From Verrucomicrobium sp. BvORR106 (lineage in GTDB: Bacteria; Verrucomicrobiota; Verrucomicrobiia; Verrucomicrobiales; Verrucomicrobiaceae): a stretch of 64,000 bases of DNA. Of the stretch, positions 4,465 through 51,658 are shown in pieces. The stretch lies in contig NZ_BATR01000114.1 in the NCBI RefSeq assembly GCF_000739655.1, positions 62,001-126,000 of the forward strand. Reading direction: 5' to 3'. The translations under genes and the position numbers were made by a program. The first letter of the stretch is position 1; each line of letters begins with the position of its first letter. Below the pieces are notes generated by a model, which saw nothing but the letters and a program-made list of their open reading frames with translations, made no database searches and was not told the DNA's origin.

Positions 4465-4737
4465 CTAGCCAGCATCCGTTTGCTCAGAGGTGGAATCGTC
4501 TGCTGTGCGAATCGGAGGTGGGACGAAGATGGAAGAACCAGTCAGATCATTGAGTGTCTGGCTGCTGGGTGATTGCTGTTGGCTTGGGATGGGCTCTTTG
4601 TTTTGGGTGTCTTTGTCCAGTGGTTCTATAGGTGGCAATGCTGGTGACGTGATTCCCATTCCGGGACGATATTCAGTGACGTTGTATTTGTGGTGAGAAC
4701 TCATATGAGGGGTAGTTGGCGGTGATCTTTGCTGCAT
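4465..4737 (-). CDS. possible small Pro/Ser-rich protein
   Basis: An open frame of 90 codons, upstream of and co-directional with the DUF892 gene. The product would be hydrophilic and disordered, rich in Pro, Ser, Thr and Gln, with no signal peptide or known motif. An internal ATG at 4704 gives a 79-residue version starting MSSHHKYN. Small disordered proteins beside stress-type ferritin-like genes are common, but coding status is unproven. Confidence 0.35.
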   Translation of the reverse strand: MQQRSPPTTPHMSSHHKYNVTEYRPGMGITSPALPPIEPLDKDTQNKEPIPSQQQSPSSQTLNDLTGSSIFVPPPIRTADDSTSEQTDAG

Positions 4738-4934
4738 ACTCTCGAAGCATTGGCTGAAATTGTATATGGGGTGAACGCCCCATCATTTCTGCGAGGGGTT
4801 AGGGACAAGACATGGCTCGAGAATCGCCCGCATTTGCGTGCAGGGGACTTTGGAATAGGGGTTTTCTAGTGGACGAAATTATTGTGGGTACTTAGTATTC
4901 ACCAGTCGGAATATTCCCATTCCGACAAATTCCT

Positions 4935-7900
4935 ATGAAGGTTTTCGTTGTTCTCGCTTCGTTTCTTACTGTTGCTCAACTACTTGTGCTGCCGCTGCAC
5001 TCGCAGTCGGTGTTGTACTGGGATCTCAATGGTAACGTGGCTGGGTCGGGTGGAGGGAGTGGTCCCTCAGGAGTGTGGAACTCAACTGCGGCCAACTGGA
5101 ACCCTCAGGCTGACGGCACGGGTGTTCCTTCCACGTGGACAGCCGGGCAGATTGCGGCCTTTGCGGCGGGTAACAATGCCAAAGGCGCGTACCAAGTGAT
5201 TCTTGCGGGTACTCAGATCGCGGCCGGGGTGACGTTGGAGGAGGGCACGCTGACGCTCGCGGGCGGGTCCCTTTCCTCTGGTGCCTCATCTCTCGCCGTG
5301 CAGGTGGCGACGGGCACCCGACTCAATCTCAATTCGGTGCTGGCCGGGACGGTGACCGCGGGCTCGAACGGCATGGCGATCAGCGGTGGCGGTACCGTCA
5401 GACTCATGGCGGCCACGAACACCTTCACCGGGGACATCTCCGTCAACGCTTCGCGATTGGAGGTCCTCACCGGCACCACCGATTTGCTGTCCTTGGGAGC
5501 AGGCACCAAGGCCATCACGCTCACCAACGGTGCCGTCGTCGCTCCGGTGAACTCCGCGAACCCAGCCTCCACCAGTGGCAAGTCGTTCGTTATCGGCACG
5601 GGCGGTGGCACCTTCAACGTGGTCAACGGAGTGAGCCTGACGCTGGATGACGCGGGGCAGTTCAGTGGGACTGGCAACTTGACCATCACGGGTTCCGGCA
5701 CGGGTACCGTGATCTTGGGAAACACAAGTGTGGCCCATACCTTCACGGGCAGTGTGAATGTCCAGTCCGGAACACTTCGGGTTCAGAACGCGGGGGCGGT
5801 CGGTGCGGTGGCAGGTGGCAAGACGATTACCGTGGCTGATGGAGCTTCTCTTGACATCCGGGCGGCGCTGAATGCCATTCCCATCACAGTGCAGGGGAGC
5901 GGGGTGAACAACACGGGGGCACTGACCAACTCCACGACCACGGCGGGAAGCAGTGCTTCGGCCATCACGCTGGCTGGTCATGCCAGCATGGGGGTGACCA
6001 ATACGGCCGCGTTGACCATCTCTGGGGTTATTTCCGGAAGCGGCATGAATCTGACCAAGGTGGGTGCGGGAGCGGGTACGCTGGTGCTGAGCGGGCTGAA
6101 TACCTACACAGGCAACACGATCGTGAATGGCGGCACGCTGGTGGCTAGTGCTGCGACGAATGCAGCCCCCATCAACAGTGCCTCCGGCCTGGTGCTGAGC
6201 GGGACGGGTACGTTCCAATATTTGGGACGATCCGGTGCCTCGGTCACCATGGTATTGAATGGCCTGGAGCTGGCGGGAGGGGCGGGCACGGTTGATGTCA
6301 ACAACGCCGGCACCATCACCACCCTGGATCTGCGGGGCACCGGCGGCACCTTGGGGATCACACGAACGACGAGGGGTGGTACGGTGGACTTCAAAGCGAC
6401 CACGGGCACCTTGGGGACCACCGCAGTGATTCTGACCAATCAGGCCAATGATGCCTCTGGAATCCTCGGGGCCTGGGCCACCGTGAACGGTGGGGCCAGC
6501 TTTGCCATGAATGACGGCACTGGCAAGGTGGTGGCCTACGGCACCTTCACCGACATTGCGGCCCTGGGGGCATCCATCGCCAACGGTGTGAACACCAATG
6601 TCAGGATCAATTCGGCGGGATCGGGGGCCAACATGGCCCTGGCCGCAGGCACCACCAGCATCAACACCCTGACGCAAAACAGCACTACCGCAGTCATCGT
6701 TGATACGGCGGGCAAGATTTTGCGATTTGGCGCAGCCGGTGGGTTGCTCATCACTCCTACGGCATCCACCACAGGCTCGTTGACCATTGGCACGGCGGCC
6801 AACTCTGGCACCGTCACCGCCGGAGGATCAGACAACACGGCAGGGGAATTGATTCTCTCCGCCTACTCCGGAGCAGCCCTGACCGTGAACTCCGTGATCG
6901 CCGACAACGGGACAGGAGTTGTCTCTGTGAACCGATCCGGGACTGGTGCAGGCTTGGTCACGCTGGCGGGCACGAACACTTACACGGGCTCTACCACCCT
7001 GGCGGCGGGCATCACCAATGTGACCGTACTGGCGAATGTGAACATCGCCAGCAGCATCGGTCAAGGATCATCCGCAGGCTCGGCAGCAGATCTGGTGCTG
7101 AACGGCGGTACGCTGCAGTTCACCGGGGCGGCCGCAGCCAGCACGGATCGACTCTTCAGTATTGGGCTGGGCGGCGGAGCAATAGATTCCTCCAGTGCTA
7201 CTGCAGCCGCGGTGGTGAACTTTAGCGGGACCGGTGCCATCGGTTTTAATGGCCAGAGCGGTGCCCGCAGTTTCACGCTCACGGGCACGAATACGGGGGC
7301 CAACATTCTGGCTGGGGTCCTGGGTGACAACGGCGGATCAACCACTCTGACCAAGAGCGGAGCGGGCCTGTGGGTGCTGACGGGTGAGAACACCTACAGC
7401 GGGATGACCACCATCACCGCCGGTACGCTTCGTGTGGGCAATGGGGGGACAACGGGCTCCTTGGGGACGGGTGCTGTTAACTTGACGGGCACGCTGATCT
7501 TCAATCGCAGTGACAACTACACGGTGAACAATGCTATTTTCGGCACCAGTGGATCTGTGATCACCCAGGCGTCTGCCAATGTCCTGACTCTGGCTGGCGC
7601 GGGGATCAACACCGGTGGCCTTCGCTTTACCGTGGATGGTGGGACGATCGACATCACCGGGAACGATGTGATCCTCACTGGGAGCTCAGCCCTGGTCACC
7701 ACCAACAGCGGTACCATCAATGGTACGGGAGGAGGACGCATCCTCCTGGGTGCGGCCAATGGCGACTATGGTGCAGCGAGCGGCAAGACACTGGTGATCA
7801 ACACGGTGATCGCGGATGGCACAGCTACGACGATTGATTTTCATGGGGGCACGAACAGCACGGGGGTCACGTTCCTCACGGCCGACAACATCTTCACAGG

Positions 7901-10900
7901 GACGGCCAACATCCAGGGGCAGGCGGTCTCTGTGACCAAGATCGGCAATGCGGGGACGGCGGGCAACCTCGGGGTGAACTCGGTCATCAATATCGGTACC
8001 GGTGCAACCACGACTTCTCGATTGATCTACACAGGCGCGGGCGAAACGACGGACAGGACGATCAACTTGTCTGCGTCCACAGGGGTTGCCATCATCGACC
8101 AGTCAGGCACTGGTCTGCTGGAGTTCACGAGTGCGGTCACGGCGGCGGCCGGTGTCAAGTCGCTGACCTTGCAAGGTTCGACCGCTGGGGTGGGGCGCAT
8201 GAGTGGGAACATTGCCAACGGAACGGATCCTGTGGGCATCATCAAGTCAGGAACGGGAACCTGGACGCTTGCGGGAAACAATGCCTACTCCGGCGCCACC
8301 GCTGTGAACGGGGGGCTGCTTTACGCTGGCTCAACCAGCGCCTTTGGCAACGGGTCCGCCATGACTGTGGCTGCGGCTGGTACGGTCAGGCTGGACGGCT
8401 TCAGCAATTCTTTGGGTTCACTTGCCGGAGCGGGCTTGATGGAGAACGCGAATGGCTCTGCGGTGACTCTTACCCTGGGCACTGACGGAACCTCCACGAT
8501 ATTTAGCGGCACTCTGCGGGATGGCACTGGCGGTGGAGCCTTGTCGCTGGTCAAGACTGGTGCGGGAGCGCAAACCCTGGGAGGTGCAGAGATTTCCTAT
8601 ACCGGAAGCACGGTGATCGGCGCTGGCACAGTGCATCTCACGGGATCGCAGGGTGCGGTGCTTGCCACTAGCAGCATCACGGTGGCAGGAGGAGGGACTT
8701 TGAATCTGAACAATCAGACGGCTCAGCTTTATTCCTTTTCATCGGGAACGCTGAGTTTTGGCACCGGGACGGGTACGGCGACGCTGGGGTTGGAACTGGG
8801 CGCGAACACGGCTGCTTCTGACCGCTATGTTAGCAGCGGGTCGATCGTCACCGCCAACAACATCGCCTTCAACATCTTTGCTCTCAGCGGTTTTGGGCAG
8901 TCCTTGAGCTATGACCTGCTCACTGCTGGGAGTGGACTGAGCGGAGCGACCTACTCTTTGTCATCCGTGGCAGGTGGTTACACCTACAACCTCGTCACCA
9001 GTGACACCAAGGTAACGTTGCAGCTCGCTGCCATGGCGGCGGGAGATCTCTATTGGCGGGGAGCCCTGAACAATAGCTGGTCCGCCTACAATGCCGGGGT
9101 CACCAACTGGACCACCGACGCAGCGGGCACGCTCAATGCCGGAGGTAATCCTGGCGCTTCAAACTCGGTGATCTTCAGTGCCAGCCCAGTCGCCGGACCT
9201 GCCGTCACTACCACCTTGGATGGCAACTACGTCATTCGTGATCTCACCTTCACCGCAGTGCCCAATGGCGTCACTTCTGTCGCCATTGCTCCTGGAATCA
9301 ACTCCACCAACTCGCTGACGCTGGCTCCTATCACTGATACGACTGGGATTCTCGTACAGGACAATGCTGGCAGTGTGACCATCTCAGCACCCCTCGTTCT
9401 CGGGGCCGCTCAGACCTGGAACGTAGTGGGTACGGGCGCGAACGGTTCCTCGTTGACCGTGTCTGGAGGAATCTCTGGTTCGGGGAATCTCACGAAGTCG
9501 GGGACTGGCACCTTGTCCATCAACGGCGTTTCCACGAACTCGGGAACGACCACGATCTCCGGAGGAACGGTGGTGGGTGGGGTAGCATCGGCCTTCAGTG
9601 GTAGTTCGGCGTATACAGTGAACAGTCCTGCCATCGTGCGGCTCAATGGTTTTGCCAATGCCATGGGATCGCTGGCGGGATCCGGCATTGTCGAAAACAA
9701 CCATGCCAGCACGGCCGCGACCCTCACGGTAGGAGCGAACAATCTCAGCACGCTGTTCAGTGGGATCCTGCGGAACAACAGCGGAGCGGGTACCGGCACG
9801 CTCTCCCTGGTGAAGACGGGCACAGGCACCATGACCCTGACTGGGGCCAATACTTTCACGGGCACCGCGACGGTCAGTGCAGGGACACTGACGGTGGGGA
9901 ATGGCACGAGTGGGAGCATCACCACGACCTCAAACGTCATTGTGGGGAATACGGCCGGCAATGCCGTGCTGAACGTGACAACAGGCGGTTCGATCTCCAG
10001 CGCGCTTCTAGTGGTGGGCAACGCCAATGGGGCGTCAGGAGCGGTCAATATCAGTGGCGGTTCTTACACTGCGACGACGGCTGAGACCCAGGACACGATC
10101 CCGGCTTTCGGCGCGGCCAATGGAGGCTACGGCAGTCTTGTCATGTCGGGTGGCACGTTGAACCTAGCCAGGTTCCAGTTCGGCGGGGTTCAGGGAGCCA
10201 ATACCACTGGTGGCATTGGGGTGGGCCTGATCACGGGCGGTACAGTGAACAACACTGGATTCCTGCTGCTGGCCCGTCATGGCGCGTCCATCGGGGTGCT
10301 CACGGTGGCCGGGGGTACGCTCAATCACAATGCTGCCGGGCAGAACATTGCCCTGGGCTGGCAGGGTACGGGGCGCGCTGAGCTGAATCTCACGGGCGGC
10401 ATGCTGGACAACACGGGACGCAGTGTGCAGTTTGGCGGGGGCACCTGGACGGGCACCGCCATCGTCAATCTCAACGCTGGCACTCTCGTGACCAACTCAT
10501 TCACCCGCACTTCGGGGACGAGCTACATCAACTTTAGCGGCGGCACTCTGCGTGCGGGAGCGGCGAGCACCACCTTTATTCCCACTACGGTAAACCGGGT
10601 TACGGTGAACGGGGCCTTTGGGGCCTTTGCAGGTGGGGCTGTGATTGATACCAACACCTTCGATCTCACCATTGGTGCGAACATGCTTGCAGCCACGGGC
10701 GACGGTGTGTCCACCATCCAGGTGATTGACGGCGGTTCAGGCTACATCGGGGCTCCAGCGGTCACCATCAGTGGCCTTGGCGTCGGTGCGACCGCGATTG
10801 CCAACATGGTGGATGACGGCACGGGCATTGGCACCCTGAAGGTGGCTAGCATCACCATCACCAATCCCGGTGTGGACTACACAGGAACTCCTACAGTGAC

Positions 10901-13900
10901 GCTCGCCGGAGGCGGCGCGGCTACGGCTGCCACGATCGGTACGGTCAGCCTGGCCGCCAACACTTCTGGTGGACTCACCAAGTCAGGGGCCGGGGTGCTG
11001 ACGTTGAGCGGTACCAACACCTTCGCGGGAGCCGTCAGCGTCACCGGCGGAGCTTTGGCATTCTCGGCGAGTGAGAATCTGGGTGATGCTTCGGCCGCTA
11101 CGAACACGCTTGGCCTCAGCAACGGTGCGGTGTTGCGATACACAGGGGCGGGTGCTCTCGATTTGGGGGCAAATCGTTCCTTGGCCCTGGGAACGGGTGG
11201 GGGGAGCGTGGACGCCAATACTGCCACCGGGGTGCTCACGTCTGGCGGTGGGATCTCAGGCACTGGTGCGACTTTCACGAAGACCGGTACTGGGGCTCTC
11301 ATTGTCAATGGAGCGGCGACCCACACCGGGGCGACCAATGCGTCCGCTGGCATCCTGACTATTACTGGGAGCCTGAATGGGACGAATGCTCTCAACGTCA
11401 GCACTGGGGCCACGATGAATCTTACGGGGTCGCTGCTGGCTCCAGCCTCCATTCAGACCATTGCCGTTGCGGGTGGCGGTTACTTGAATCTCGCGAACGG
11501 TACGGGGGTGCCGCTCTCGAATGTTGGCACCTTGAACCTCGGGGCGGGCACGGGGACGGCGAGACTGGGGCTGGAGCTGGGCACCACCTCGGATTTGATC
11601 ACTTCTTCAGGTCTGGCCGTCACGGCCAATTCGGTCCGATTCGAATTGAGCAAGCTGGCAGGCTTTGGGGTGGGCAGCTACAACCTACTCACTGCGACGG
11701 GTGGTTTGGGCAGTGCCAGCTACACGGCCCATCTCACGGGGTACGCGTACAGTCTCACCTCATCTGCCACTTCGGTGCAGTTGAATGTGTTGTCTGCCTT
11801 GATTGGGGACGTGTATTGGCGTGGTGATCTGGGGAACAGCTGGGCCAGCTACGCCCTTGGCTCTACCAACTGGGCCTCCAATGCGGCGGGGACGGTCGAT
11901 GCTGCGGCGTTGCCGGGGATTGCCAATGGCGTGATTTTCAGTTCCAGCGCTACGACGGGGCCGACTATTTCCACCACGTTGGATGGGGATTTTGCCATTG
12001 GCAGCCTCAGATTCACCAATGCGCCAGCCGGTGTCACGAGCGTGACCATCGCTCAGGGTACTTCTGGCACGCTGACGCTGGCTCCTGCGGTTTCAACCAG
12101 CGGCCTCACGGTCGATGACAACGCTGGCAACATCACCATCTCCGCTCCTGTTGCTCTGGGGGCAGATCAGACCTGGACCATGAGCGCCACCGGCGCAACT
12201 CTCACTATCAGTGGCCCCATCACGGGGACTGGCATGCTGACCAAGGCGGGTGCGGGTACCGTGACCTTGTCCGGCAACAGCACCTATTCAGGAGCCACGG
12301 TGGTCTCCACCGGAGTGCTGCAGGCGGGTTCTGCGACGGGATTCAGTGCCAATTCTGCCTACACGGTCAATGGTACAGCAATCCTCCGGCTCAACGGCAA
12401 CAATGCCAACGTGGGCTCCCTTTCAGGCACTGGTTTTGTTGAGAACAACCATTCGGCCAATGCCTCCATTCTCACGGTGGGAGCTTTGAATAGCAGCACC
12501 GCCTTTGGTGGGGTGATCCGGAACGGTGCAGCGGGCACCATGGGACTGACCAAGGTGGGAATCGGGACATTGAGTCTCGGCGGGGTCAATACTTACACAG
12601 GGGCCACGTTGATTACCGGGGGGACACTGCAACTCGCCACGGGTGGAAACTTGACCGGAAACAGCGCGTTGACGATCACCGCTGCTGCGGGAGTAACGGC
12701 CTCATTCGATGTGAATGGCGGCACTCCAACGCTCGCCTCCATTACCTTGGGCGGCGCTTCGGCGACCTCTACCGCGAATGTCCTCGATACGGCGGGCACT
12801 GGGGTGATCAATCTGGGGGGCAATATCACCTATAACGGCACCAACAATCCCTTGGGCTCGACCTTCAATGCGGGATTGCTGTACACCAATCCGGGAGGAA
12901 GCAGAACCATCACGGCGAACACCTCGACCAGTGCATTGGTGGAACTGACCTTCAACGGGGCCATCAATGGAACAGGATTCGTGACTGACAACAGGGTGAT
13001 CTTCTCCGGAACGGGAGACATCACCCTCAACAACACCGTGACGGTTGCCGGTTCAGGTTCTGATCTGCAGAAGAACAGCACCGGGATACTGAACATCAAC
13101 GCTGCCACCACCGTGACCGATGACTGGGTGATCGACGCGGGCATCGTGAATGCCAACGTGAGCAATGCGCTCAATGCCACCGACGATATCGTCATCGATG
13201 GTACGAGCGTCCAGGACTCTGCCGTGGTGAACGTTGGGGGAACGGCGGGAACTTCAGGAGTGCATCAGGGGGACGACATCTTCATTCGCAACGGCGGCCG
13301 GGTGAATGTGCTGGTAAACAACGGCATCAGCCTGGGCACGGACATGATCCTCGTCGGCGATTCCTCGTCGGCCTCCGCGGCGGCGGCCGGGCGGCTGGAT
13401 CTCGCAGCGGACATTTCGATTGGCGCCAATGGCCTGCAGGTGGGCAACGGTACCAACATTGGCAATGTCACCGGTACGGGCACCATCACCACGGCCGGGA
13501 CCTTCTCCCTGCGGAATGGCACGGTGGAGAGTGGCATCACTCTGGCAGGCGCAGGTGCCATCACGAAGGTGAGCAACGCCACGTTTGTCTTCTCCGGATC
13601 TCGCACTGCGACAGGAGCGACCAACATCCAAGAGGGCACCTTGGTCCTTGACTACACGACCAACAACGCCAGCAAGATCGGCGGGGTGCTTACCCTCGGC
13701 TCGCTCATCCCAGCCGCGGCCAATCCGGTGCTGACCATCAACGGCAATGCCTCGGCCGCGACCAATCAGGTGGTGGCCAGCACCACCCTGATTCTGGGCA
13801 CTAGCAGAGTGAATGTGAATGCCGGCACCGGACAGCAGGCATCGCTCAGTCTCGGCGCCGTCACAAGGACAGTGGGCGGTTCCACCCTGGTCTTCACCTA

Positions 13901-45818: not shown

Positions 45819-46526
45819 CTATCTCCGTGGCCGCTGACGCCGCATGATCGCGGCAATGCCCGTGAACAAGAGCAGCAGGCTACCGGGTTCCGGCACAGGA
45901 GCGACGGCCAAGTTGATTTTGGTGAGAGAGGCGCTTTGGCCAAGAGCTCCGACCAGGGTGCCGCCTGCGATCTGGACGTTGACGGGTTGGACATTGTCCA
46001 CGTCACCCGTTGTGAAACTGAAGACAAAGGACTCCGTGGCAGTCTGGTCCAAGAGTCCAAGCAGGGTGCTGGTCGGGGTTTGGTAGACGACACCTCCATT
46101 CACCAGAATATTGACGTTCAGTGCGCTGAGGATGGCGACCGTAGACGACGAGTTGCCGCTGATGGTGAGATTGTAAGTGGTGTTATCCAGCAGGGTGATT
46201 CCCGTAAAGGCTTTGGTGGCTGAGAAGCTCCCTGCGACCCCCGCCACCCCGGCCTGGGCAATCTGAAACAGTCCTCCGGAGTCATTTGCAATCCCCGGGT
46301 TCATCGTAAGCGTCTGGCTGGACGCGACTCCGACGAAGGTGTTGGAGGCAGTCCATCCAGCGCCCAGATTGGCGCTGTTGGTGGTGCCCACTGTTGCGAC
46401 CAGAGTCGTCTGAGTGACCGTCTCCGAGGGAGTTCGGTCCAGGGCGTTCGCAATGAGCACCTGGGCCGATACCGAGGAAGTACCGATCCAGAGCCCTGCC
46501 GCCAGGATGATTAGCAGGGGTTTCAT
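45819..46526 (-). CDS. small PEP-CTERM exported protein
   Basis: 235 residues. Signal peptide (LLIILAAGLWIGTSSVSA), a Thr/Ser/Ala-rich beta-type body, and a C-terminal PEP-CTERM signal: VPEPGS, hydrophobic helix LLLLFTGIAAIM, then RRQRPRR. Such proteins are sorted by an exosortase/archaeosortase-like system to the cell surface. The body has no known domain; it has a TTLVATVGTTNSANLGAGW type start. No exosortase is encoded in this window. It is the second PEP-CTERM protein here after the giant repeat protein. Confidence 0.85.
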   Translation of the reverse strand: MKPLLIILAAGLWIGTSSVSAQVLIANALDRTPSETVTQTTLVATVGTTNSANLGAGWTASNTFVGVASSQTLTMNPGIANDSGGLFQIAQAGVAGVAGSFSATKAFTGITLLDNTTYNLTISGNSSSTVAILSALNVNILVNGGVVYQTPTSTLLGLLDQTATESFVFSFTTGDVDNVQPVNVQIAGGTLVGALGQSASLTKINLAVAPVPEPGSLLLLFTGIAAIMRRQRPRR

Positions 46527-46601
46527 GAGTCGCCATAAAGATAAGAAAAAATAATGCTAATGGCAACATCTATTTATTAGGAGGGCTACTGCACAATGAA
46601 A

Positions 46602-46634
46602 AACCCGTCTCCGGCGGTGTTCCGGAGACGGGTT
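46602..46634 (-). terminator. terminator of the type VII-like operon
   Basis: Perfect 13-bp stem (aacccgtctccgg / ccggagacgggtt) with a 7-base loop, located 28-60 bases after the stop of the FtsK-like gene; on the minus strand it is followed by tttttc. It closes the operon. Confidence 0.9.
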
Positions 46635-46661
46635 CTAATGGTTCCTTGGCAGCAGGGAAGA

Positions 46662-49600
46662 CTACTTCATCTTCTGCCCAGCCTCTTCGATCCAGCCCGC
46701 GTCAGGCATGGCGTAGGGGCGGAAGGTCTCCAGCGTGCCTTCGTGTTCATTGTAGAACAGCGCGCGGTGCAGGCCCAGGTTGCTGGCTTTAGGGGAGTCG
46801 ATGAGGCTGGCGGAGTCATTGGCGCTCATCTGGAAGACCACGCGCATCTCAAACTCGCTCAGCGCCTTGCGGCTCAGCGAGCGGTTGACGTTGTTGAACG
46901 TGTCCACGGTAGTCAGGACGTGCATGCCCAACGGACTGCCCTCCGTGATAAGATCCACAAACTGGGTGCCGGGGTTTCCGCCGCCTTCGTCGTCGCTGCT
47001 CATGGAGAAGCTGAAGTCATCCTCCTGGCGCAGCTTCTTGTACTTGTGCAGGCCATGGATGAGCAGGAAGACAGCCGGAGCGCGGGAGGCTTCGACTTCA
47101 CCACTGGTGCGGGCCTTCATCTCGGCAGACAGTTCCGACATGATGACGCCGATATCCTGACCGCGGGAGACGGTGATCTCATGGGGGACCGCCGCAATGG
47201 CCCGCTCGATGAAGTCGGACTCGGTTGTGCCTGGGGTGCAGCCGTGGAGGACCACGAACTTGGCCCCACCCACTGGGTACTGGGCGGCGAGTGAAAGCAG
47301 GGAGGTGCCCAGCAGGGTGAGGGCTGCCTCGTCCCGCTGTCCGACGATGAGCAGGTGGTTCCCACTCTGACGGTGGAAGGCGGCCTCCGTGGGGCCCTTG
47401 ATGGAATTGGGGGCACCCATCCAGGCCTTGCCAGCCAGGGGCTGATTGGCAGGCTTGGTGTCCAGTGCAAAACGAAGCAGTTGGTTCTCGCGGAGATCGG
47501 CGGGAGCATTGCCTTCGAAGACAATCGGGGAGGTGTACTCGTGCCCACGTTCCACGGCCAGATCGTGGACCTTGTCGAGCCACTCGTCGCGTTCATCATC
47601 TCCCAACCACACGACTTGGAACGGACTGTTCCCTTCCATGGCCCCAGCGGCGTCATTGTAGATGCCTTCACCGGGCCGGGTGAGGAGGCGCGGAGCCGCA
47701 TTGTTCTCATCCATGATGAGATAGGCATCCGCCTCGTTGCACTGCAGGGCTACGCGAATGACCATCTGACCCAGGGTGGCGCGGGCCAGCGAATAGGCCC
47801 CGCCAAGGGTCTGGGAGCCTAGCAGCACATGAATGCCGAAGGCACGGCCCTGACGGACGATGCGGTCAAAGAGCAGAGAGGCGGTCTGGGCGATGGTGTC
47901 ATCGTCCACGAAGAACTCCTGGAACTCATCGATGAGCAACAGGGAGCGCGGCATGGGCTCGGTGCCGCCGGCGCGCTTGTAGCCGGCGACGTCCTGCACG
48001 CCCAGTTTCCGGAACATATCACCGCGGCGTTTCAGCTCGCCGTCCACGCGCTGGAGCACGCTCAAGGCAAACTCGCGATCACTCTCAATGGCGACGACCT
48101 TCGCGTGGGGAAGCTTCTTCGAAGCGTAGCACTTGAACTCCACGCCCTTTTTGAAGTCGATGAGATAGAACTCGACCTCCTCCGGGCTACAGGTGAGCGC
48201 GAGGTTGGTGATGATGACATGGAAGAGGGTTGATTTCCCTGAACCCGTCTTGCCGGCGAAGAGGGCGTGCTGCCGGGTGCCTTTGCCGATGGCCAGGTAC
48301 TGGAGCTTGGTGGCTCCGGTACGCCCGATGGCGATACGAAGCTCGTTGGTGGTTTCACCCGCCCACAGCTCACCCGGAGGCGGTGCGATCTGGGAGAACG
48401 GCACCTGAACGATGTTGGAGTCGATGCTGCTCTTCCCGATGCGATGCACGAGCTGGACGGCCAGATCGGGATTCGGAGGAGCGTCGAACACAAGGGTGGC
48501 TCCCGACTTCTTCACGACGTCATTCGCCAGCACAAACCCGTTCCGCTCCTTGCGGAGGCAGATGCTGTTCTGCCGCAGTTCATCTGGCGTGAAGCCATCG
48601 GGCAGAGGATGGCGTTGGTCCCAATGAATGAGCGTATAGATACCGCAGCGTGGGCCGCTGGTGGCGATGCTCTGGAGGCGCTTGGCTGCTGTCTCGCTGA
48701 AGTTCACCGGGAAGTCCGCGATGACGAGGAAGTGGTACTTCTCGGCCACGCTGCCAGCTTGCTCGTTGTACTCCGTGATGGTGGCGTACTCGTTGCGAAG
48801 GTACATCTGGATGACCTTCTCAATGTGCTCGCTCAATTCCGCGAGGCGCTCCTCGATCTGATCGCGCTGGGTCCAGATGCGTCGGTTGATGAGCGTTTCC
48901 TCGTAGTCGGAGAGGTGCATCAGGCCAGCAAAGCTCTGGCCCAGTCCCACAGGATCAATGATCGTGAAGCTGAGTTTGCCGGGTGGGGTGGTGGCGAGGA
49001 GGCGGAGGATGATGTTGTTCAGCGCATCGATCGCGGTGGTGCCTCCCGGTTCGTTGGTTTCAAACAGGAGGGAGCCTTGATAGGGGAAGGAAAGCGAGAG
49101 CGGGATGGAAAGCTTCGACGGCCCGGGAAGGGCGAGTCTTGGATCCTTTGGCAGCGTCGCGGTCGGACGCGTCAGATCGACCTCCAGCTGGGCAAATCGC
49201 GTGGCCGGGGTGAAATCCGTCGGAGGCTTCCAGCCTTCCGCATAGCCCGGGTGCCACTGGGGGAACCGGGCGGCGGTCGCCGAGTTCATCTGGCTGATGG
49301 CGTCATAGATCGGCGTGATTTCGCTCTTCCATTCGGCCTCGATCTGGTGCCAGCGCGCATTTTCCCCAGCCTCCAGGGAGGCGACATCGGCCTGCTGGGC
49401 TCCGCGCAGCTGGGAGATGTTGGCGGAGTCCGTATGCGTGACGGAATCAATGCGGTGGGACTGCTCTGACTCAACCCGTGCCAGACGTGAGGCAAGGGTG
49501 AGGTCAATCTTTTCCAGCAGACGGGGATATTGGGCGGCGAGTTTGGCCTTGGTGCGCTCCTCGAACTCCAGGGCCACATCGTCCGCACGCAGCTTCTGCT

Positions 49601-50552
49601 CTTCGATCTCCGCCACCTCACGGTCAAACGCGTCTTGCAGGGCTCCGCGCCCCTGCTGGGTATGCGAGTCCACGGTGGCCCGGCAGCTGTCCTGCAGGAA
49701 GCGGGCTTCTTTGATGGATGCGGCCAGCTCCCGGGCGAGAGGCTTCACCTTGGACATGCCGATGAGGTGAATGATCCAGACGGAGGCAAACGCCACGGCG
49801 CAGCCGGTCGCGACGACGCTGTAGTCTTTGGGGTGGAGCCCCATGCCGTACAGGGCAGCCAAGCCAATCAGGATGATGCCGAGGGCAAAGAAGGTGAGGG
49901 GAATCTTTGCGAAAAGCTTGGGCAGAGGAAACTGCTTGAACTCATCGAGCTGTTTCTCACCTGCCGCCAGATGTGCCTGAAGGTTGTTGAGCCACTCGGC
50001 TTCTTCGCCGGCGGGAACGGGGCCCGGCAGCGGGGCTTTACGACGCACGCGGATCAGGTTGATGAACGAGCTGGATCCCGCAAAGGCATCCCGCGTGCTG
50101 TGCAGAAGATCTGTGAACTGGGACTGGTAGGTGGCCAGGCGTCGCGTGAACTCCGGGTTCACCACGCCGGACGATTCCAGCTGGCGCTCCAGGCGGAAGC
50201 GGCGCATTTGCAGCTCCCCCAGCCAGCTCTCCCGCACCTCCCGCACGCGGCGGGGCAGATGCCGGGTGAGGACGAGATGAGAGCGTTCCACTCGGGCGCG
50301 ACGACGTTCATAGACGCGTTTGAGCCGGGAGGACTCTGCCTCCAGATGGGCCTGGGCTTCGGCGACTTCCTGATCCAGCCGGCTTTGCGCCTGATCGATG
50401 GTGACCTGATGTTTCTGTGTGACAGTGTTGCGCTGCGTGCGCAGCTCTTTTTGCAACTGCTCCTCGCGTTTCGCGAAGTCCGCCACCTTGCTCTCCAGGG
50501 CGTCGAGCAATTCGACGCTCCGGCTGGCTCTGAGATCCAACCCGTTACTCAC
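46662..50552 (-). CDS. EssC/EccC-like FtsK/SpoIIIE ATPase with coiled-coil N-terminus
   Basis: 1296 residues. Residues 18-130 are charged coiled coil; two membrane helices at about 217-238 and 245-266; more coiled coil to about 410. Then come three ATPase-type domains as in EssC/EccC, the motor of type VII secretion. The first (from about 480) has a degenerate P-loop region (TNEPGGTTAIDA). The second has a canonical Walker A GKTGSGKS (Lys773) and Walker B LLLIDEFQEF (about 871-880). The third has a degenerate site, VGQRDEAAL (about 1065). FHA domains of EssC are absent. GTG start; its first 8 bases overlap the upstream WXG-like gene, so they are coupled. It is followed by a strong terminator. 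Most likely drives export of the small proteins encoded upstream; a DNA-translocase role is the alternative. Confidence 0.85.
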   Translation of the reverse strand: MSNGLDLRASRSVELLDALESKVADFAKREEQLQKELRTQRNTVTQKHQVTIDQAQSRLDQEVAEAQAHLEAESSRLKRVYERRRARVERSHLVLTRHLPRRVREVRESWLGELQMRRFRLERQLESSGVVNPEFTRRLATYQSQFTDLLHSTRDAFAGSSSFINLIRVRRKAPLPGPVPAGEEAEWLNNLQAHLAAGEKQLDEFKQFPLPKLFAKIPLTFFALGIILIGLAALYGMGLHPKDYSVVATGCAVAFASVWIIHLIGMSKVKPLARELAASIKEARFLQDSCRATVDSHTQQGRGALQDAFDREVAEIEEQKLRADDVALEFEERTKAKLAAQYPRLLEKIDLTLASRLARVESEQSHRIDSVTHTDSANISQLRGAQQADVASLEAGENARWHQIEAEWKSEITPIYDAISQMNSATAARFPQWHPGYAEGWKPPTDFTPATRFAQLEVDLTRPTATLPKDPRLALPGPSKLSIPLSLSFPYQGSLLFETNEPGGTTAIDALNNIILRLLATTPPGKLSFTIIDPVGLGQSFAGLMHLSDYEETLINRRIWTQRDQIEERLAELSEHIEKVIQMYLRNEYATITEYNEQAGSVAEKYHFLVIADFPVNFSETAAKRLQSIATSGPRCGIYTLIHWDQRHPLPDGFTPDELRQNSICLRKERNGFVLANDVVKKSGATLVFDAPPNPDLAVQLVHRIGKSSIDSNIVQVPFSQIAPPPGELWAGETTNELRIAIGRTGATKLQYLAIGKGTRQHALFAGKTGSGKSTLFHVIITNLALTCSPEEVEFYLIDFKKGVEFKCYASKKLPHAKVVAIESDREFALSVLQRVDGELKRRGDMFRKLGVQDVAGYKRAGGTEPMPRSLLLIDEFQEFFVDDDTIAQTASLLFDRIVRQGRAFGIHVLLGSQTLGGAYSLARATLGQMVIRVALQCNEADAYLIMDENNAAPRLLTRPGEGIYNDAAGAMEGNSPFQVVWLGDDERDEWLDKVHDLAVERGHEYTSPIVFEGNAPADLRENQLLRFALDTKPANQPLAGKAWMGAPNSIKGPTEAAFHRQSGNHLLIVGQRDEAALTLLGTSLLSLAAQYPVGGAKFVVLHGCTPGTTESDFIERAIAAVPHEITVSRGQDIGVIMSELSAEMKARTSGEVEASRAPAVFLLIHGLHKYKKLRQEDDFSFSMSSDDEGGGNPGTQFVDLITEGSPLGMHVLTTVDTFNNVNRSLSRKALSEFEMRVVFQMSANDSASLIDSPKASNLGLHRALFYNEHEGTLETFRPYAMPDAGWIEEAGQKMK

Positions 50553-50757
50553 AGTCGTTTTTCACCTTTCTAAGCAAATTGTCCATCTCCTCCATGACAT
50601 TCCGCGCATGGGTCACCAGATGCGGAAGTTTTTCCAGGTAGTGTTCTTGAAATTCGAGGGCCTTTTGGTCCCGCCAACTGGACCGGGTTTGCTGCCACTC
50701 CACCGTCAATTCACGGAGGGCTTGGGCGAGGTTGGAGGCGCTGACGCGGGTGCTCAT
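50545..50757 (-). CDS. WXG100-like small protein 2
   Basis: 70 residues, two helices around a turn with SSWRDQKALEF (Trp28-Arg-Asp30). This fits the helix-turn-helix hairpin of WXG100 proteins, with Asp in place of Gly. The same pattern W-x-D-Q-x4-F is in the other small protein of the operon. The last codons overlap the GTG of the ATPase gene (GTGAGTAA). No YxxxD/E secretion motif is seen at the C-terminus. WXG100 proteins are secreted as dimers by type VII systems; here the two could pair. Confidence 0.75.
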   Translation of the reverse strand: MSTRVSASNLAQALRELTVEWQQTRSSWRDQKALEFQEHYLEKLPHLVTHARNVMEEMDNLLRKVKNDCE

Positions 50758-50830
50758 GCGATAGGAAATAAAAGCGGCTGGAAAGAATCAAAAACGCCAG
50801 ATGGGACGAGGCGTCTTAAGGGACAAAACC

Positions 50831-51367
50831 TCAGGAGGGTTGTTCAGATTCCGTTGAACTCGGCAGGGCGGGTCCCGGCCCGGAGGGGGCGGGGCCACCC
50901 ATCTGATGGTAGGACTCCAGAATCTTCTGAACCTGATCCAGGTAGGCGACGGCTTTGGGCAGGTCGTGATCCACATAGTCCCGCAGCATTTCCATCTTCC
51001 GGACATGCGGATCGAAGGTGCTGTCGAAGTTCCGGTTCCATGCCTTGACCCGGTCCAGTTTCTGCTCGGCCTCAGCAACGGCAGCCTTGGCTTTCCGGAC
51101 TGCGGCTTGTTGCTGGGAAGGGGAGTCCACGAACTCAGACATGCGGGCAGTCATGAGTTCGCCTTCCGCCTGCTCCAGCATGCGTCGGCGTCGACGGATC
51201 TGCCCCTCCCAATGCGTGCGCTGTTCCGTCTGCACCCAGGCCCGGGCACGGCGGACTTCATCGCCAGACTGGTCGAGTGAGCGCCGGGCCTTCGTGATGA
51301 AGATGACGAGGTGCGCCCGGAAGCTCTGGAGGGCGTCGAGTGAGGTGATTTTTGCCTGATCAGCCAT
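50831..51367 (-). CDS. coiled-coil protein of the type VII-like operon
   Basis: 178 residues, almost all helical and highly charged up to about 152, then a Pro/Gly/Ser tail. Between two helices it has THWEGQ (Trp53-Glu-Gly55), a genuine W-x-G, so it may be an enlarged WXG-type protein. No signal peptide. It is placed between the two short WXG-like genes, 18 bases after the first and 73 bases before the second. No known family; partner, substrate or chaperone of the ATPase are options. Confidence 0.65.
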   Translation of the reverse strand: MADQAKITSLDALQSFRAHLVIFITKARRSLDQSGDEVRRARAWVQTEQRTHWEGQIRRRRRMLEQAEGELMTARMSEFVDSPSQQQAAVRKAKAAVAEAEQKLDRVKAWNRNFDSTFDPHVRKMEMLRDYVDHDLPKAVAYLDQVQKILESYHQMGGPAPSGPGPALPSSTESEQPS

Positions 51368-51385
51368 GATGAGTCAGACAGCAGC

Positions 51386-51658
51386 CTAACGTTGATCGAG
51401 GTATTGTTCGATGCGTTGTGCCTTCCGCAGGAGGAACGGTGTGTGTTTCTCGGAGATCTCCACGAACTTTTTGAGCGCCTTCATCGTGGTGATGAATTCC
51501 TCGGCGAACTTCTCATGCTCCTGATCCTGCCAGGTACCGCTCAGGGCGGTAAAACGGGCATTCAGAGCCGAGGCCTTGGTCTGCACGTCGTCATTGAAGC
51601 GCTTGAGCTCCTTCGCGAAGCGCCGCACCTCCTCTGGATCCATGATTGCCTGTGCCAT
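51386..51658 (-). CDS. WXG100-like small protein 1
   Basis: 90 residues, close to the usual 100, two amphipathic helices joined at SGTWQDQEHEKF (Trp43-Gln-Asp45). WXG100 proteins carry W-x-G in this turn; the Asp variant occurs in many systems outside Actinobacteria. First gene of an operon of four. No Shine-Dalgarno. Likely a substrate or a structural part of the secretion complex (inference). Confidence 0.82.
   Translation of the reverse strand: MAQAIMDPEEVRRFAKELKRFNDDVQTKASALNARFTALSGTWQDQEHEKFAEEFITTMKALKKFVEISEKHTPFLLRKAQRIEQYLDQR

What the first reader, a model, noticed from the sequence alone, without database searches (positions are those of the whole stretch)
46602..51658. Compact type VII secretion-like operon in a Gram-negative Verrucomicrobiota-type genome
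Four co-directional genes, with overlap between the last two and a terminator at the end: two WXG100-like proteins (W-Q-D, W-R-D), a 178-residue coiled-coil protein with a real W-E-G, and an EssC/EccC-like ATPase with two membrane helices and three ATPase-type domains. No EccB/D/E, mycosin, EsaA/EssA/EssB or YukD is seen near. A two-membrane cell would need some way across the outer membrane. This may be a minimal type VII-like system that has its own architecture.
Basis: partly seen in the sequence, partly recalled or inferred. Interest (0 to 1): 0.82.

Follow-up and report, generated by a model that had tools for sequence, protein, structure and literature searches.

The report
Stand-alone WXG100–EssC-like four-gene cassette
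Verrucomicrobium carries a compact, strongly conserved four-gene unit built around an ATPase like the motor of type VII protein secretion, but several relatives keep the unit after losing its only membrane-spanning part, so it may do something other than export proteins.

Summary
The four genes are real and co-directional on the minus strand. They are W90 (WXG100), C178 (predicted as one long helical hairpin), S70 (short, only weakly WXG100-like) and a 1296-residue EccC/EssC-type ATPase, closed by a terminator-like hairpin. The same unit recurs in Verrucomicrobiota: complete in 77 of 81 loci whose upstream DNA is not cut. It is under strong purifying selection and has no recurrent neighbour.

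It fails tested features of type VII secretion. The ATPase has a DUF domain plus two FtsK-like domains, with one Walker A motif. W90 has W-x-D in 96 of 96 rows and YxxxD/E in none. YukD and YukC were not found in the genome. The class is already in print: "solo WXG" with a three-domain, middle-active YueA-like ATPase, naming verrucomicrobia.

New here:
- the fixed four-gene make-up with a nuclease-free hairpin protein, where some relatives carry nuclease toxins;
- the membrane hairpin of the ATPase, missing in 11 of 107 full-length orthologs, probably through four losses;
- W90 kept as an unlinked single copy in several genomes.

I read it as an ATPase machine optionally tethered to the inner membrane, not a proven secretion channel.

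The parts
51386..51658 (-). W90: 90-residue WXG100 protein with W-Q-D at residues 43-45
   Evidence: Pfam PF06013 40.7 bits over cut-off; W-x-D in 96 of 96 ortholog rows; nearest solved chains are 3fx7 and 2gts (HP0062) and EsxB
50831..51367 (-). C178: 178-residue protein predicted as one long helical hairpin (residues 2-76 and 84-155) with a low-confidence proline-rich tail
   Evidence: AlphaFold2 mean pLDDT 89.9, pTM 0.68; no PDB match with E<=0.001; conserved in the cassette
50545..50757 (-). S70: 70-residue protein with W-x-D, marginally WXG100-like; overlaps the ATPase start by 8 bases
   Evidence: TIGR03930 E 0.004, below cut-off; W21, W28 and D30 invariant in 19 aligned rows
46662..50552 (-). 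EccC/EssC-like ATPase, 1296 residues, GTG start
   Evidence: FtsK_SpoIIIE E 4.9e-32; TIGR03924 EccCa E 1.9e-35, under its cut-off; PDB best 4nh0 E 7.3e-34, identified as EccC
49761..49904 (-). transmembrane hairpin of the ATPase, about residues 217-264
   Evidence: Kyte-Doolittle segments 217-235 and 246-264; no such segment in 11 of 107 full-length cassette orthologs
48420..49292 (-). DUF (D0) domain of the ATPase, about residues 421-711, preceded by a long helical stalk
   Evidence: VIA-align to EccC5 DUF domain 8rin: Z 15.2, rmsd 4.2, 230 aligned
48228..48254 (-). Walker A of the only active-looking ATPase domain (GKTGSGKST, residues 767-775)
   Evidence: all nine residues invariant in the 58-row alignment; exactly one Walker A pattern in 114 of 116 orthologs, more than one in 2
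46701..47528 (-). C-terminal FtsK-like domain without Walker A, about residues 1009-1284 (its N-terminal border is not sharp)
   Evidence: VIA-align to ATPase domains 6j17 Z 17.8 and 6tv1 (EssC D3) Z 14.9
46601..46635 (-). terminator-like hairpin closing the unit
   Evidence: 14-bp stem followed by U's; the 71-nt stretch folds at -31.1 kcal/mol, z -5.35

Best explanation
This is a stand-alone WXG100/EssC-like cassette, the Verrucomicrobiota branch of the 'solo WXG plus three-domain YueA-like ATPase' class. Shown by sequence and structure prediction: one EccC/EssC-type motor with a single active-looking FtsK domain, one WXG100 protein (W90), one short partner (S70) and one long helical hairpin (C178), kept together as a unit. 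Inferred: the ATPase forms a ring. W90 docks on its degenerate domains through its very conserved C-terminal tail. S70 and C178 join W90 as partner and rod-like co-substrate. ATP turnover in the middle domain moves or takes apart this complex at the inner face of the cytoplasmic membrane. The membrane hairpin acts as a tether that can be dispensed with, so the cassette alone is not a secretion pore. Any passage across a membrane would need another, unidentified channel.
For: (1) Four-gene unit conserved: of 20 family loci all 20 have C178, S70 and ATPase, and 19 have W90. Of 81 further cassette-type loci whose upstream DNA is not cut, 77 have all four genes. (2) No other gene family recurs beside it in more than 7 of 104 loci (6 of 97). 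(3) W90 and ATPase co-occur: both in 43 of 68 genomes of the family, ATPase alone in 2 draft genomes, W90 alone in 0. W90 is kept even where it sits away from the ATPase. (4) dN/dS 0.00-0.05. (5) DUF, middle and last domain by fold. The middle domain is closest to EccC D1 (91, 84 and 79 bits against 42, 32 and 26 for D2). (6) No TM segment in 11 of 107 full-length orthologs; the tree of 103 rows needs 5 changes. (7) No TM segment by hydropathy in the W90, C178 and S70 rows examined (18, 19 and 19 rows).
Against: 96 of 107 full-length orthologs do carry at least one predicted membrane segment. The stalk and DUF part resembles EccC in the ESX-5 pore (7np7 Z 15.2, aligned from residue 349 on, so the membrane hairpin itself is not in the match). 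WXG100 proteins elsewhere are secreted. TM calls rest on Kyte-Doolittle hydropathy alone. Three of the four TM-less lineages (L148, L166, L170) rest on one metagenome-assembled genome each. In L170 the small genes were not found near the ATPase. By fold alone the middle domain matches FtsK as well as EccC (Z 23.0 and 22.7). Ring assembly, docking and partner roles were not tested.
Confidence: 0.5

Rival explanations
1. A minimal type VII-like secretion system: the ATPase ring and its membrane hairpins form the inner-membrane exporter, W90 and S70 (perhaps with C178) are secreted substrates, and the outer membrane is crossed by an unlinked porin-type channel.
For: EccC-like sequence and domains; the order membrane hairpin, stalk, DUF, ATPase domains; a predicted membrane segment in 96 of 107 full-length orthologs; WXG100 family membership.
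Against: TM hairpin deleted in one genus and three single lineages; no YxxxD/E near the C-terminus of W90 (0 of 96) or S70 (0 of 102); hydrophobic-D/E C-terminal pattern in 4 of 96 W90, below the shuffled mean of 15.8; no YukD or YukC match in the genome; no effector gene recurs beside the unit; W90 is the most conserved of the four proteins (mean column identity 86%, ATPase 64%, S70 60%, C178 55%), unlike a surface-exposed effector.
Confidence: 0.3
2. A conflict (defence or toxin) module of the CoCoNuT/TerY-P-associated kind, whose nuclease effector has been lost or is encoded elsewhere, so that C178 is what remains of the effector carrier.
For: In relatives another protein stands between WXG100 and ATPase: on a Helicobacter sp. 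plasmid a long protein ending in an HNH nuclease (WHH, Colicin-DNase), followed by a SUKH immunity protein (L187); in L186 and L093 a 436-442 residue protein that I read by eye as coiled coil plus restriction-endonuclease-like end (no Pfam hit), as PMC11090510 describes for CoCoNuT loci. L093 and L186 lie with vWA, CARF, PP2C and kinase genes. The W90 model hits the WXG100s of L186 and L093 at 1.1e-22 and 6.5e-21.
Against: The C178 model does not hit those long proteins significantly; no neighbour family recurs beside the unit, although surroundings were not screened gene by gene for defence or mobile genes; the viral-contig scan gave no relative; no second C178 or W90 in the genome; PADLOC hits of the four proteins are FtsK/HerA-type or weak coiled-coil ones.
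Confidence: 0.15
3. The ATPase is a DNA translocase (FtsK paralog) and the small genes are its DNA-segregation accessories.
For: The middle domain aligns with FtsK motor structures at Z up to 23.0, as well as with EccC domains.
Against: By sequence the middle domain is closer to EccC D1 (91, 84, 79 bits) than to the genome's own FtsK (47 plus 18 bits in two pieces), the genome has a separate FtsK, and the DUF domain is an EccC/EssC feature.
Confidence: 0.05

Closest known systems
'Solo WXG' systems with a YueA-like ATPase of three HerA/FtsK domains, only the middle active (PMC3482391, table footnote; passage read)
   Same: Phylum named (verrucomicrobia), solo WXG protein, three FtsK-type domains with one active
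   Different: Called apparently mobile there; here a four-gene unit without recurrent neighbours, with a long hairpin protein and, in most members, a membrane hairpin
[quoted passage not shown]
   Same: Three-domain EssC-like ATPase with only the central domain active, two WXG100-type proteins and a coiled-coil protein
   Different: There the coiled-coil protein is fused to a nuclease and the ATPase lacks TM helices; here no nuclease was found and the window's ATPase has a TM hairpin; recurrent vWA and kinase neighbours are missing here
Helicobacter pylori WXG100 unit (HP0062, HP0066; PMC4978471, passages)
   Same: HP0062 (2gts) and 3fx7 are the best PDB matches of W90; the paper calls WxG plus FtsK a minimal T7SS set and HP0062/HP0066 their paralogs
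   Different: An HNH nuclease is listed with an FtsK cluster there; its proteins were not compared here apart from HP0062
Canonical T7SSa/T7SSb and T7SSc-j (PMC11217815, abstract and Discussion read)
   Same: WXG100 protein and FtsK-type ATPase with TM hairpin and DUF domain
   Different: Four NTPase domains there, three here; no YukD or YukC/EssB match here (EccB untested in effect); W-x-D instead of W-x-G; Gram-negative

Membership tests
Type VII secretion system | WXG100-family protein encoded with the ATPase | tested here: met
   W90 PF06013 40.7 bits, cut-off 27.3
Type VII secretion system | W-x-G motif in the hairpin turn | tested here: not met
   W-x-D in 96 of 96 W90 ortholog rows
Type VII secretion system | EccC/EssC ATPase by curated model | tested here: inconclusive
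   Best families are TIGR03924/03925/03928 but 122.8, 101 and 86.9 bits against cut-offs 509, 347 and 778
Type VII secretion system | ATPase anchored by transmembrane helices | tested here: met
   Two hydrophobic segments at 217-264 in the window protein; but none in 11 of 107 orthologs
Type VII secretion system | Four C-terminal NTPase-type domains (DUF, D1, D2, D3) | tested here: not met
   The model of residues 200-1296 holds a DUF domain and two FtsK-like domains
Type VII secretion system | YukD/EsaB-type ubiquitin-like component | tested here: not met
   No PF08817 match in the genome; control rang in Bacillus subtilis
Type VII secretion system | EssB/YukC membrane component (T7SSb) | tested here: not met
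   No PF10140 match in the genome; control rang in four genomes with Bacillus subtilis among them, over the cut-off in one
Type VII secretion system | EccB membrane component (T7SSa) | tested here: inconclusive
   No match, but the control rang in no genome
Type VII secretion system | C-terminal YxxxD/E secretion signal on a substrate | tested here: not met
   0 of 96 W90, 0 of 102 S70, 2 of 100 C178 rows in the last 25 residues
Type VII secretion system | Demonstrated export of WXG100 proteins | not testable with these tools
   needs experiment
Solo-WXG / three-domain YueA-like ATPase class (PMC3482391) | Solo WXG protein with an FtsK-type ATPase of three domains, only the middle one active | tested here: met
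   exactly one Walker A in 114 of 116 orthologs
Solo-WXG / three-domain YueA-like ATPase class (PMC3482391) | Mobile behaviour | tested here: inconclusive
   No recurrent neighbour family in 104 loci and no relative in the viral-contig scan, but patchy distribution (25 of 48 genomes of genus g9); gene trees were not held against species trees
CoCoNuT/TerY-P-associated EssC-like operon (PMC11090510) | Coiled-coil protein fused to a nuclease domain | tested here: not met
   C178 ends after the hairpin in a low-confidence tail; no nuclease family hit
CoCoNuT/TerY-P-associated EssC-like operon (PMC11090510) | ATPase without TM helices | tested here: not met
   TM hairpin present in the window protein
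CoCoNuT/TerY-P-associated EssC-like operon (PMC11090510) | Long N-terminal coiled coil on the ATPase | tested here: inconclusive
   Long helices are predicted after the hairpin; residues 1-199 were not modelled
LXG effector with Lap partners (T7SSb) | LXG domain in the long helical protein | tested here: not met
   C178 has no LXG hit in Pfam at E<=1

The most novel reading that the evidence does not exclude
A WXG100/EssC-type machine that does its work without carrying proteins across a membrane. The membrane hairpin is an optional tether, and WXG100 hairpins are internal, recycled parts of an ATP-driven complex rather than cargo. If so, the 'Gram-negative T7SS' label for this whole class is wrong, and the class shows what the EssC motor can do apart from secretion.
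Probability: 0.35. Interest if true: 0.8.

Novelty: new variant of a known kind. Interest (0 to 1): 0.5.

Why it matters
Whether the WXG100/FtsK pairs of Gram-negative bacteria are secretion systems is stated to be unconfirmed (PMC10765036, passage read). Close relatives with and without the membrane hairpin, and with W90 linked or unlinked, offer a natural experiment. If the TM-less cassettes work, WXG100 and EssC-like motors have a non-secretory use. If TM-bearing ones export W90, a minimal diderm type VII exporter exists. Either answer could be tested in cultured Verrucomicrobium and Prosthecobacter.

Tried and rejected
Considered and rejected: chromosomal FtsK (separate gene, weaker sequence match); C178 as a true W-E-G protein (G in 30 of 98 rows); C178 as an LXG protein (no Pfam hit); phage origin (pattern-based viral scan without a relative; 122 phage records match but none covers 80% of the query); further W90- or C178-type genes in the own genome (one each).

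Led nowhere: Foldseek of C178 gave only generic coiled coils, none at E<=0.001. The tree of the middle domain is unresolved at depth, has long branches and was rooted on FtsK by me. The two longer gaps (L119, L167) held no convincing cargo gene. EccB control empty. The C178 model had a weak hit (E 0.004) on a WXG100 of L186, not followed up. I first read the 'HxxxD/ExxhxxxH' pattern with H as histidine; the paper means hydrophobic, so I redid it and use only that result.

Literature: searches showed no title or abstract about this Verrucomicrobiota unit or its TM losses, but the lists of 83, 98 and 105 show only 20 of 96, 10 of 57 and 8 of 4,530 papers. Passages of PMC7159879 added nothing. 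Sutcliffe 2011, Anantharaman 2012 and Unnikrishnan 2017 were not seen, only cited in passages read. The roles of EccC in ESX pores are recalled except where one search is cited.

Rows dropped: 9 of 124 ATPases with N-termini cut by contig ends were left out of the TM count. Seven of its 107 ortholog rows repeat a sequence; of 100 distinct ones 11 lack the segment. L153 was left out of the change count, although its hairpin also looks deleted and it may be a fifth loss. L185, L187, L188, L189 and L096 were left out of the ortholog tree and L184 out of its change count. In one search I left out 13 loci by hand, not all of them repeats; redid it with repeats removed by sequence. The 103-row tree was a quick search without the mixture model. 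W90 rows were trimmed to the start codon nearest the model start, so their common length of 90 is partly my doing at the N-terminus.

Full report
What is there. On the minus strand lie four genes in order: W90 (51386-51658), C178 (50831-51367), S70 (50545-50757) and the ATPase (46662-50552, GTG start, overlapping S70 by 8 bases). A 14-bp hairpin followed by U's closes the unit at 46601-46635. The gene before it, which I recognise as a CTP synthase (not searched), ends 244 bases upstream, so the four genes can be one transcript. W90 passes the Pfam WXG100 cut-off. S70 is a marginal WXG100 relative. C178 has no family. The ATPase carries an FtsK_SpoIIIE domain and is closest to T7SS ATPases, though far under their curated cut-offs.

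Source. The window is contig C96, bases 62001-126000, of an 8.69-Mb genome. The nearest named record found is Verrucomicrobium sp. BvORR034, with a 96% identical ATPase.

Conservation. The ATPase is in 45 of 68 genomes of the family. In a sample of 387 genomes of the phylum 23 match at E<=1e-30; three of these 23 (G118, G259, G381) show only short matches by distant relatives. A pattern-based scan of named species genomes found 257 relatives, of which the best 80 were kept: 77 are labelled Verrucomicrobiota, 1 Bacteroidota and 2 without a phylum. In 20 family loci C178, S70 and ATPase are present in all 20 and W90 in 19. Of 100 further loci (L077-L176), 77 have all four genes. Of the other 23, 14 are cut within 1.3 kb upstream by the contig end, 4 are distant relatives, 1 has no complete ATPase, and 4 (L089, L105, L170, L174) have enough DNA but lack small genes; for L174 the genome keeps W90 and C178 on another contig. 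No other gene family recurs beside the unit in more than 7 of 104 loci. W90 is the most conserved of the four proteins (mean column identity 86%, against 64% for the ATPase, 60% for S70 and 55% for C178). dN/dS against two congeners is 0.009 and 0.016 for W90, 0.031 and 0.050 for C178, 0 for S70, and 0.026 and 0.029 for the ATPase.

W90 belongs to the machine even when unlinked. In the family, W90 and ATPase occur together in 43 genomes, the ATPase alone in 2 draft genomes (G022, G064), and W90 alone in none of 68. In G024, G026, G028 and G051 the single W90 lies in other surroundings than the ATPase, and in G023 W90 and C178 lie together on another contig. Some of these are draft assemblies, but G024, in about 6 contigs, has W90 and ATPase each far inside a different contig.

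Architecture of the ATPase. The model of residues 200-1296 (mean pLDDT 78, pTM 0.55) shows a short helix pair at the membrane hairpin, then a helix of 99 residues that starts with the second membrane helix and a returning helix of 81 residues, which make a long stalk. The tip of the stalk is modelled with low confidence. A DUF domain like that of EccC5 follows (8rin Z 15.2, rmsd 4.2, 230 aligned), then a middle FtsK-like domain (Z about 20-23 with FtsK, EccC and TcpA chains) and a last domain like EccC/EssC C-terminal ATPase domains (6j17 Z 17.8; 6tv1 Z 14.9). This is one NTPase domain fewer than the four described for T7SS ATPases (PMC11217815, Discussion read). The middle domain is nearest by sequence to EccC D1 (91, 84 and 79 bits in three EccCs, against 42, 32 and 26 for D2). 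Exactly one Walker A pattern is present in 114 of 116 orthologs and more than one in 2.

The membrane hairpin is optional. Of 124 ATPases, 115 had complete N-termini: 97 with a predicted membrane segment, 18 without. Eight of the 115 are relatives outside the cassette clade: seven without a segment, and L184 with a single weak one. Of the 107 cassette orthologs 11 have none. All 11 distinct g9 genomes among L021-L031 and a twelfth, L051, lack it, by a clean deletion that leaves the flanking regions; 25 of 48 g9 genomes have the ATPase, so 13 were not looked at. L148, L166 and L170 lack the hairpin too. On a 103-row quick tree the state needs 5 changes, all forced by starred branches. I read these as four losses within the clade plus one change at its base, of unknown direction. 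L148 and L166 keep all three small genes; L170 shows none nearby. None of the W90, C178 and S70 rows examined has a TM segment.

No export signal. The YxxxD/E motif is absent from the C-termini of W90 (0 of 96) and S70 (0 of 102). The wider hydrophobic-D/E pattern of PMC3935865 (passages) occurs in 4 of 96 W90 and 2 of 102 S70, fewer than in shuffled tails (15.8 and 32.0). The genome has no YukD or YukC match, with controls that rang.

Wider kin. In the plasmid collection 33 records match the ATPase, none over 80% of its length. A Caballeronia plasmid (L186) has vWA, WXG100, a 436-residue protein, two small genes, an ATPase without TM segment, a CARF protein, vWA, PP2C and a kinase. A Helicobacter sp. 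plasmid (L187) has a WXG100-like gene, a long protein ending in an HNH nuclease (WHH, Colicin-DNase), a SUKH immunity protein, a 77-residue protein and the ATPase. The W90 model hits these WXG100s at 1.1e-22 and 1.4e-13; the C178 model does not hit the long proteins significantly. So in these relatives another protein, in L187 a nuclease toxin, occupies the place of C178, but common descent of C178 with those proteins is not shown. C178 itself is predicted as a single long hairpin.

Prior knowledge. PMC3482391 has a table footnote that lineages of beta-, epsilon- and gamma-proteobacteria, planctomycetes, verrucomicrobia and others have solo WXG domains with a distinct YueA-like ATPase of three FtsK domains, only the middle active, apparently mobile versions of T7SS (passage read). 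PMC11090510 describes the CoCoNuT-associated form, notes that TM domains are lacking and that a different mechanism appears likely, and cites an earlier paper for stand-alone forms (passages). PMC4978471 calls WxG plus FtsK a minimal T7SS set, with HP0062 and HP0066 of H. pylori as paralogs (passages). PMC10765036 says such Gram-negative pairs are not confirmed as secretion systems (passage). The kind is therefore known. The fixed four-gene Verrucomicrobiota unit, its nuclease-free hairpin, the presence and repeated absence of the membrane hairpin, and the retention of unlinked W90 are what I add.

Verdict. The parts are T7SS-like and the unit is real and conserved, but membership in the T7SS fails on tested features: domain number, W-x-G, YukD and YukC, and the signal motif. 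It may still work like an EssC motor. I favour an ATP-driven WXG100 machine, optionally tethered to the inner membrane (0.5), over secretion (0.3) and a toxin-less conflict module (0.15).

Noticed in passing
L093 (G274:C1:1717000-1734000): A second, distant WXG100/FtsK locus in one genome, with vWA, Card1-like CARF nuclease, PP2C and a weak kinase match beside it, much like the Caballeronia plasmid locus L186.
   Followed up: partly
L096 (G118:C12, about 4668-12800 of the locus): In a genome of the same order: an FtsK-type ATPase, two 97-residue WXG100-like proteins, a Sel1-repeat protein and an FRG-domain protein beside RloB-like and AAA_21 genes. It looks like a defence or toxin neighbourhood.
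   Followed up: partly
L189 (MT836827.1, human gut 'bacteriophage' record): A ThiF-family protein, a 1423-residue FtsK-type ATPase without TM segment and a 349-residue protein with a WXG-like N-terminus and an HELGH motif, near a recombinase-like ORF; possibly an integrative element rather than a phage (motif, WXG-like part and recombinase read by eye).
   Followed up: no
L194, L196, L197, L199 (G024, G026, G028, G051): W90 stands alone, away from the ATPase cassette, in some genus-g9 genomes, next to unrelated genes.
   Followed up: partly
window 45819-46526: The gene just downstream (235 aa, same strand) ends in a PEP-CTERM-like tail (read by eye); a similar gene follows the unit in the congeners L032 and L033.
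   Followed up: no
L170, L089: Cassette-type ATPases with over 6 kb of upstream DNA but none of the three small genes found in the locus.
   Followed up: no
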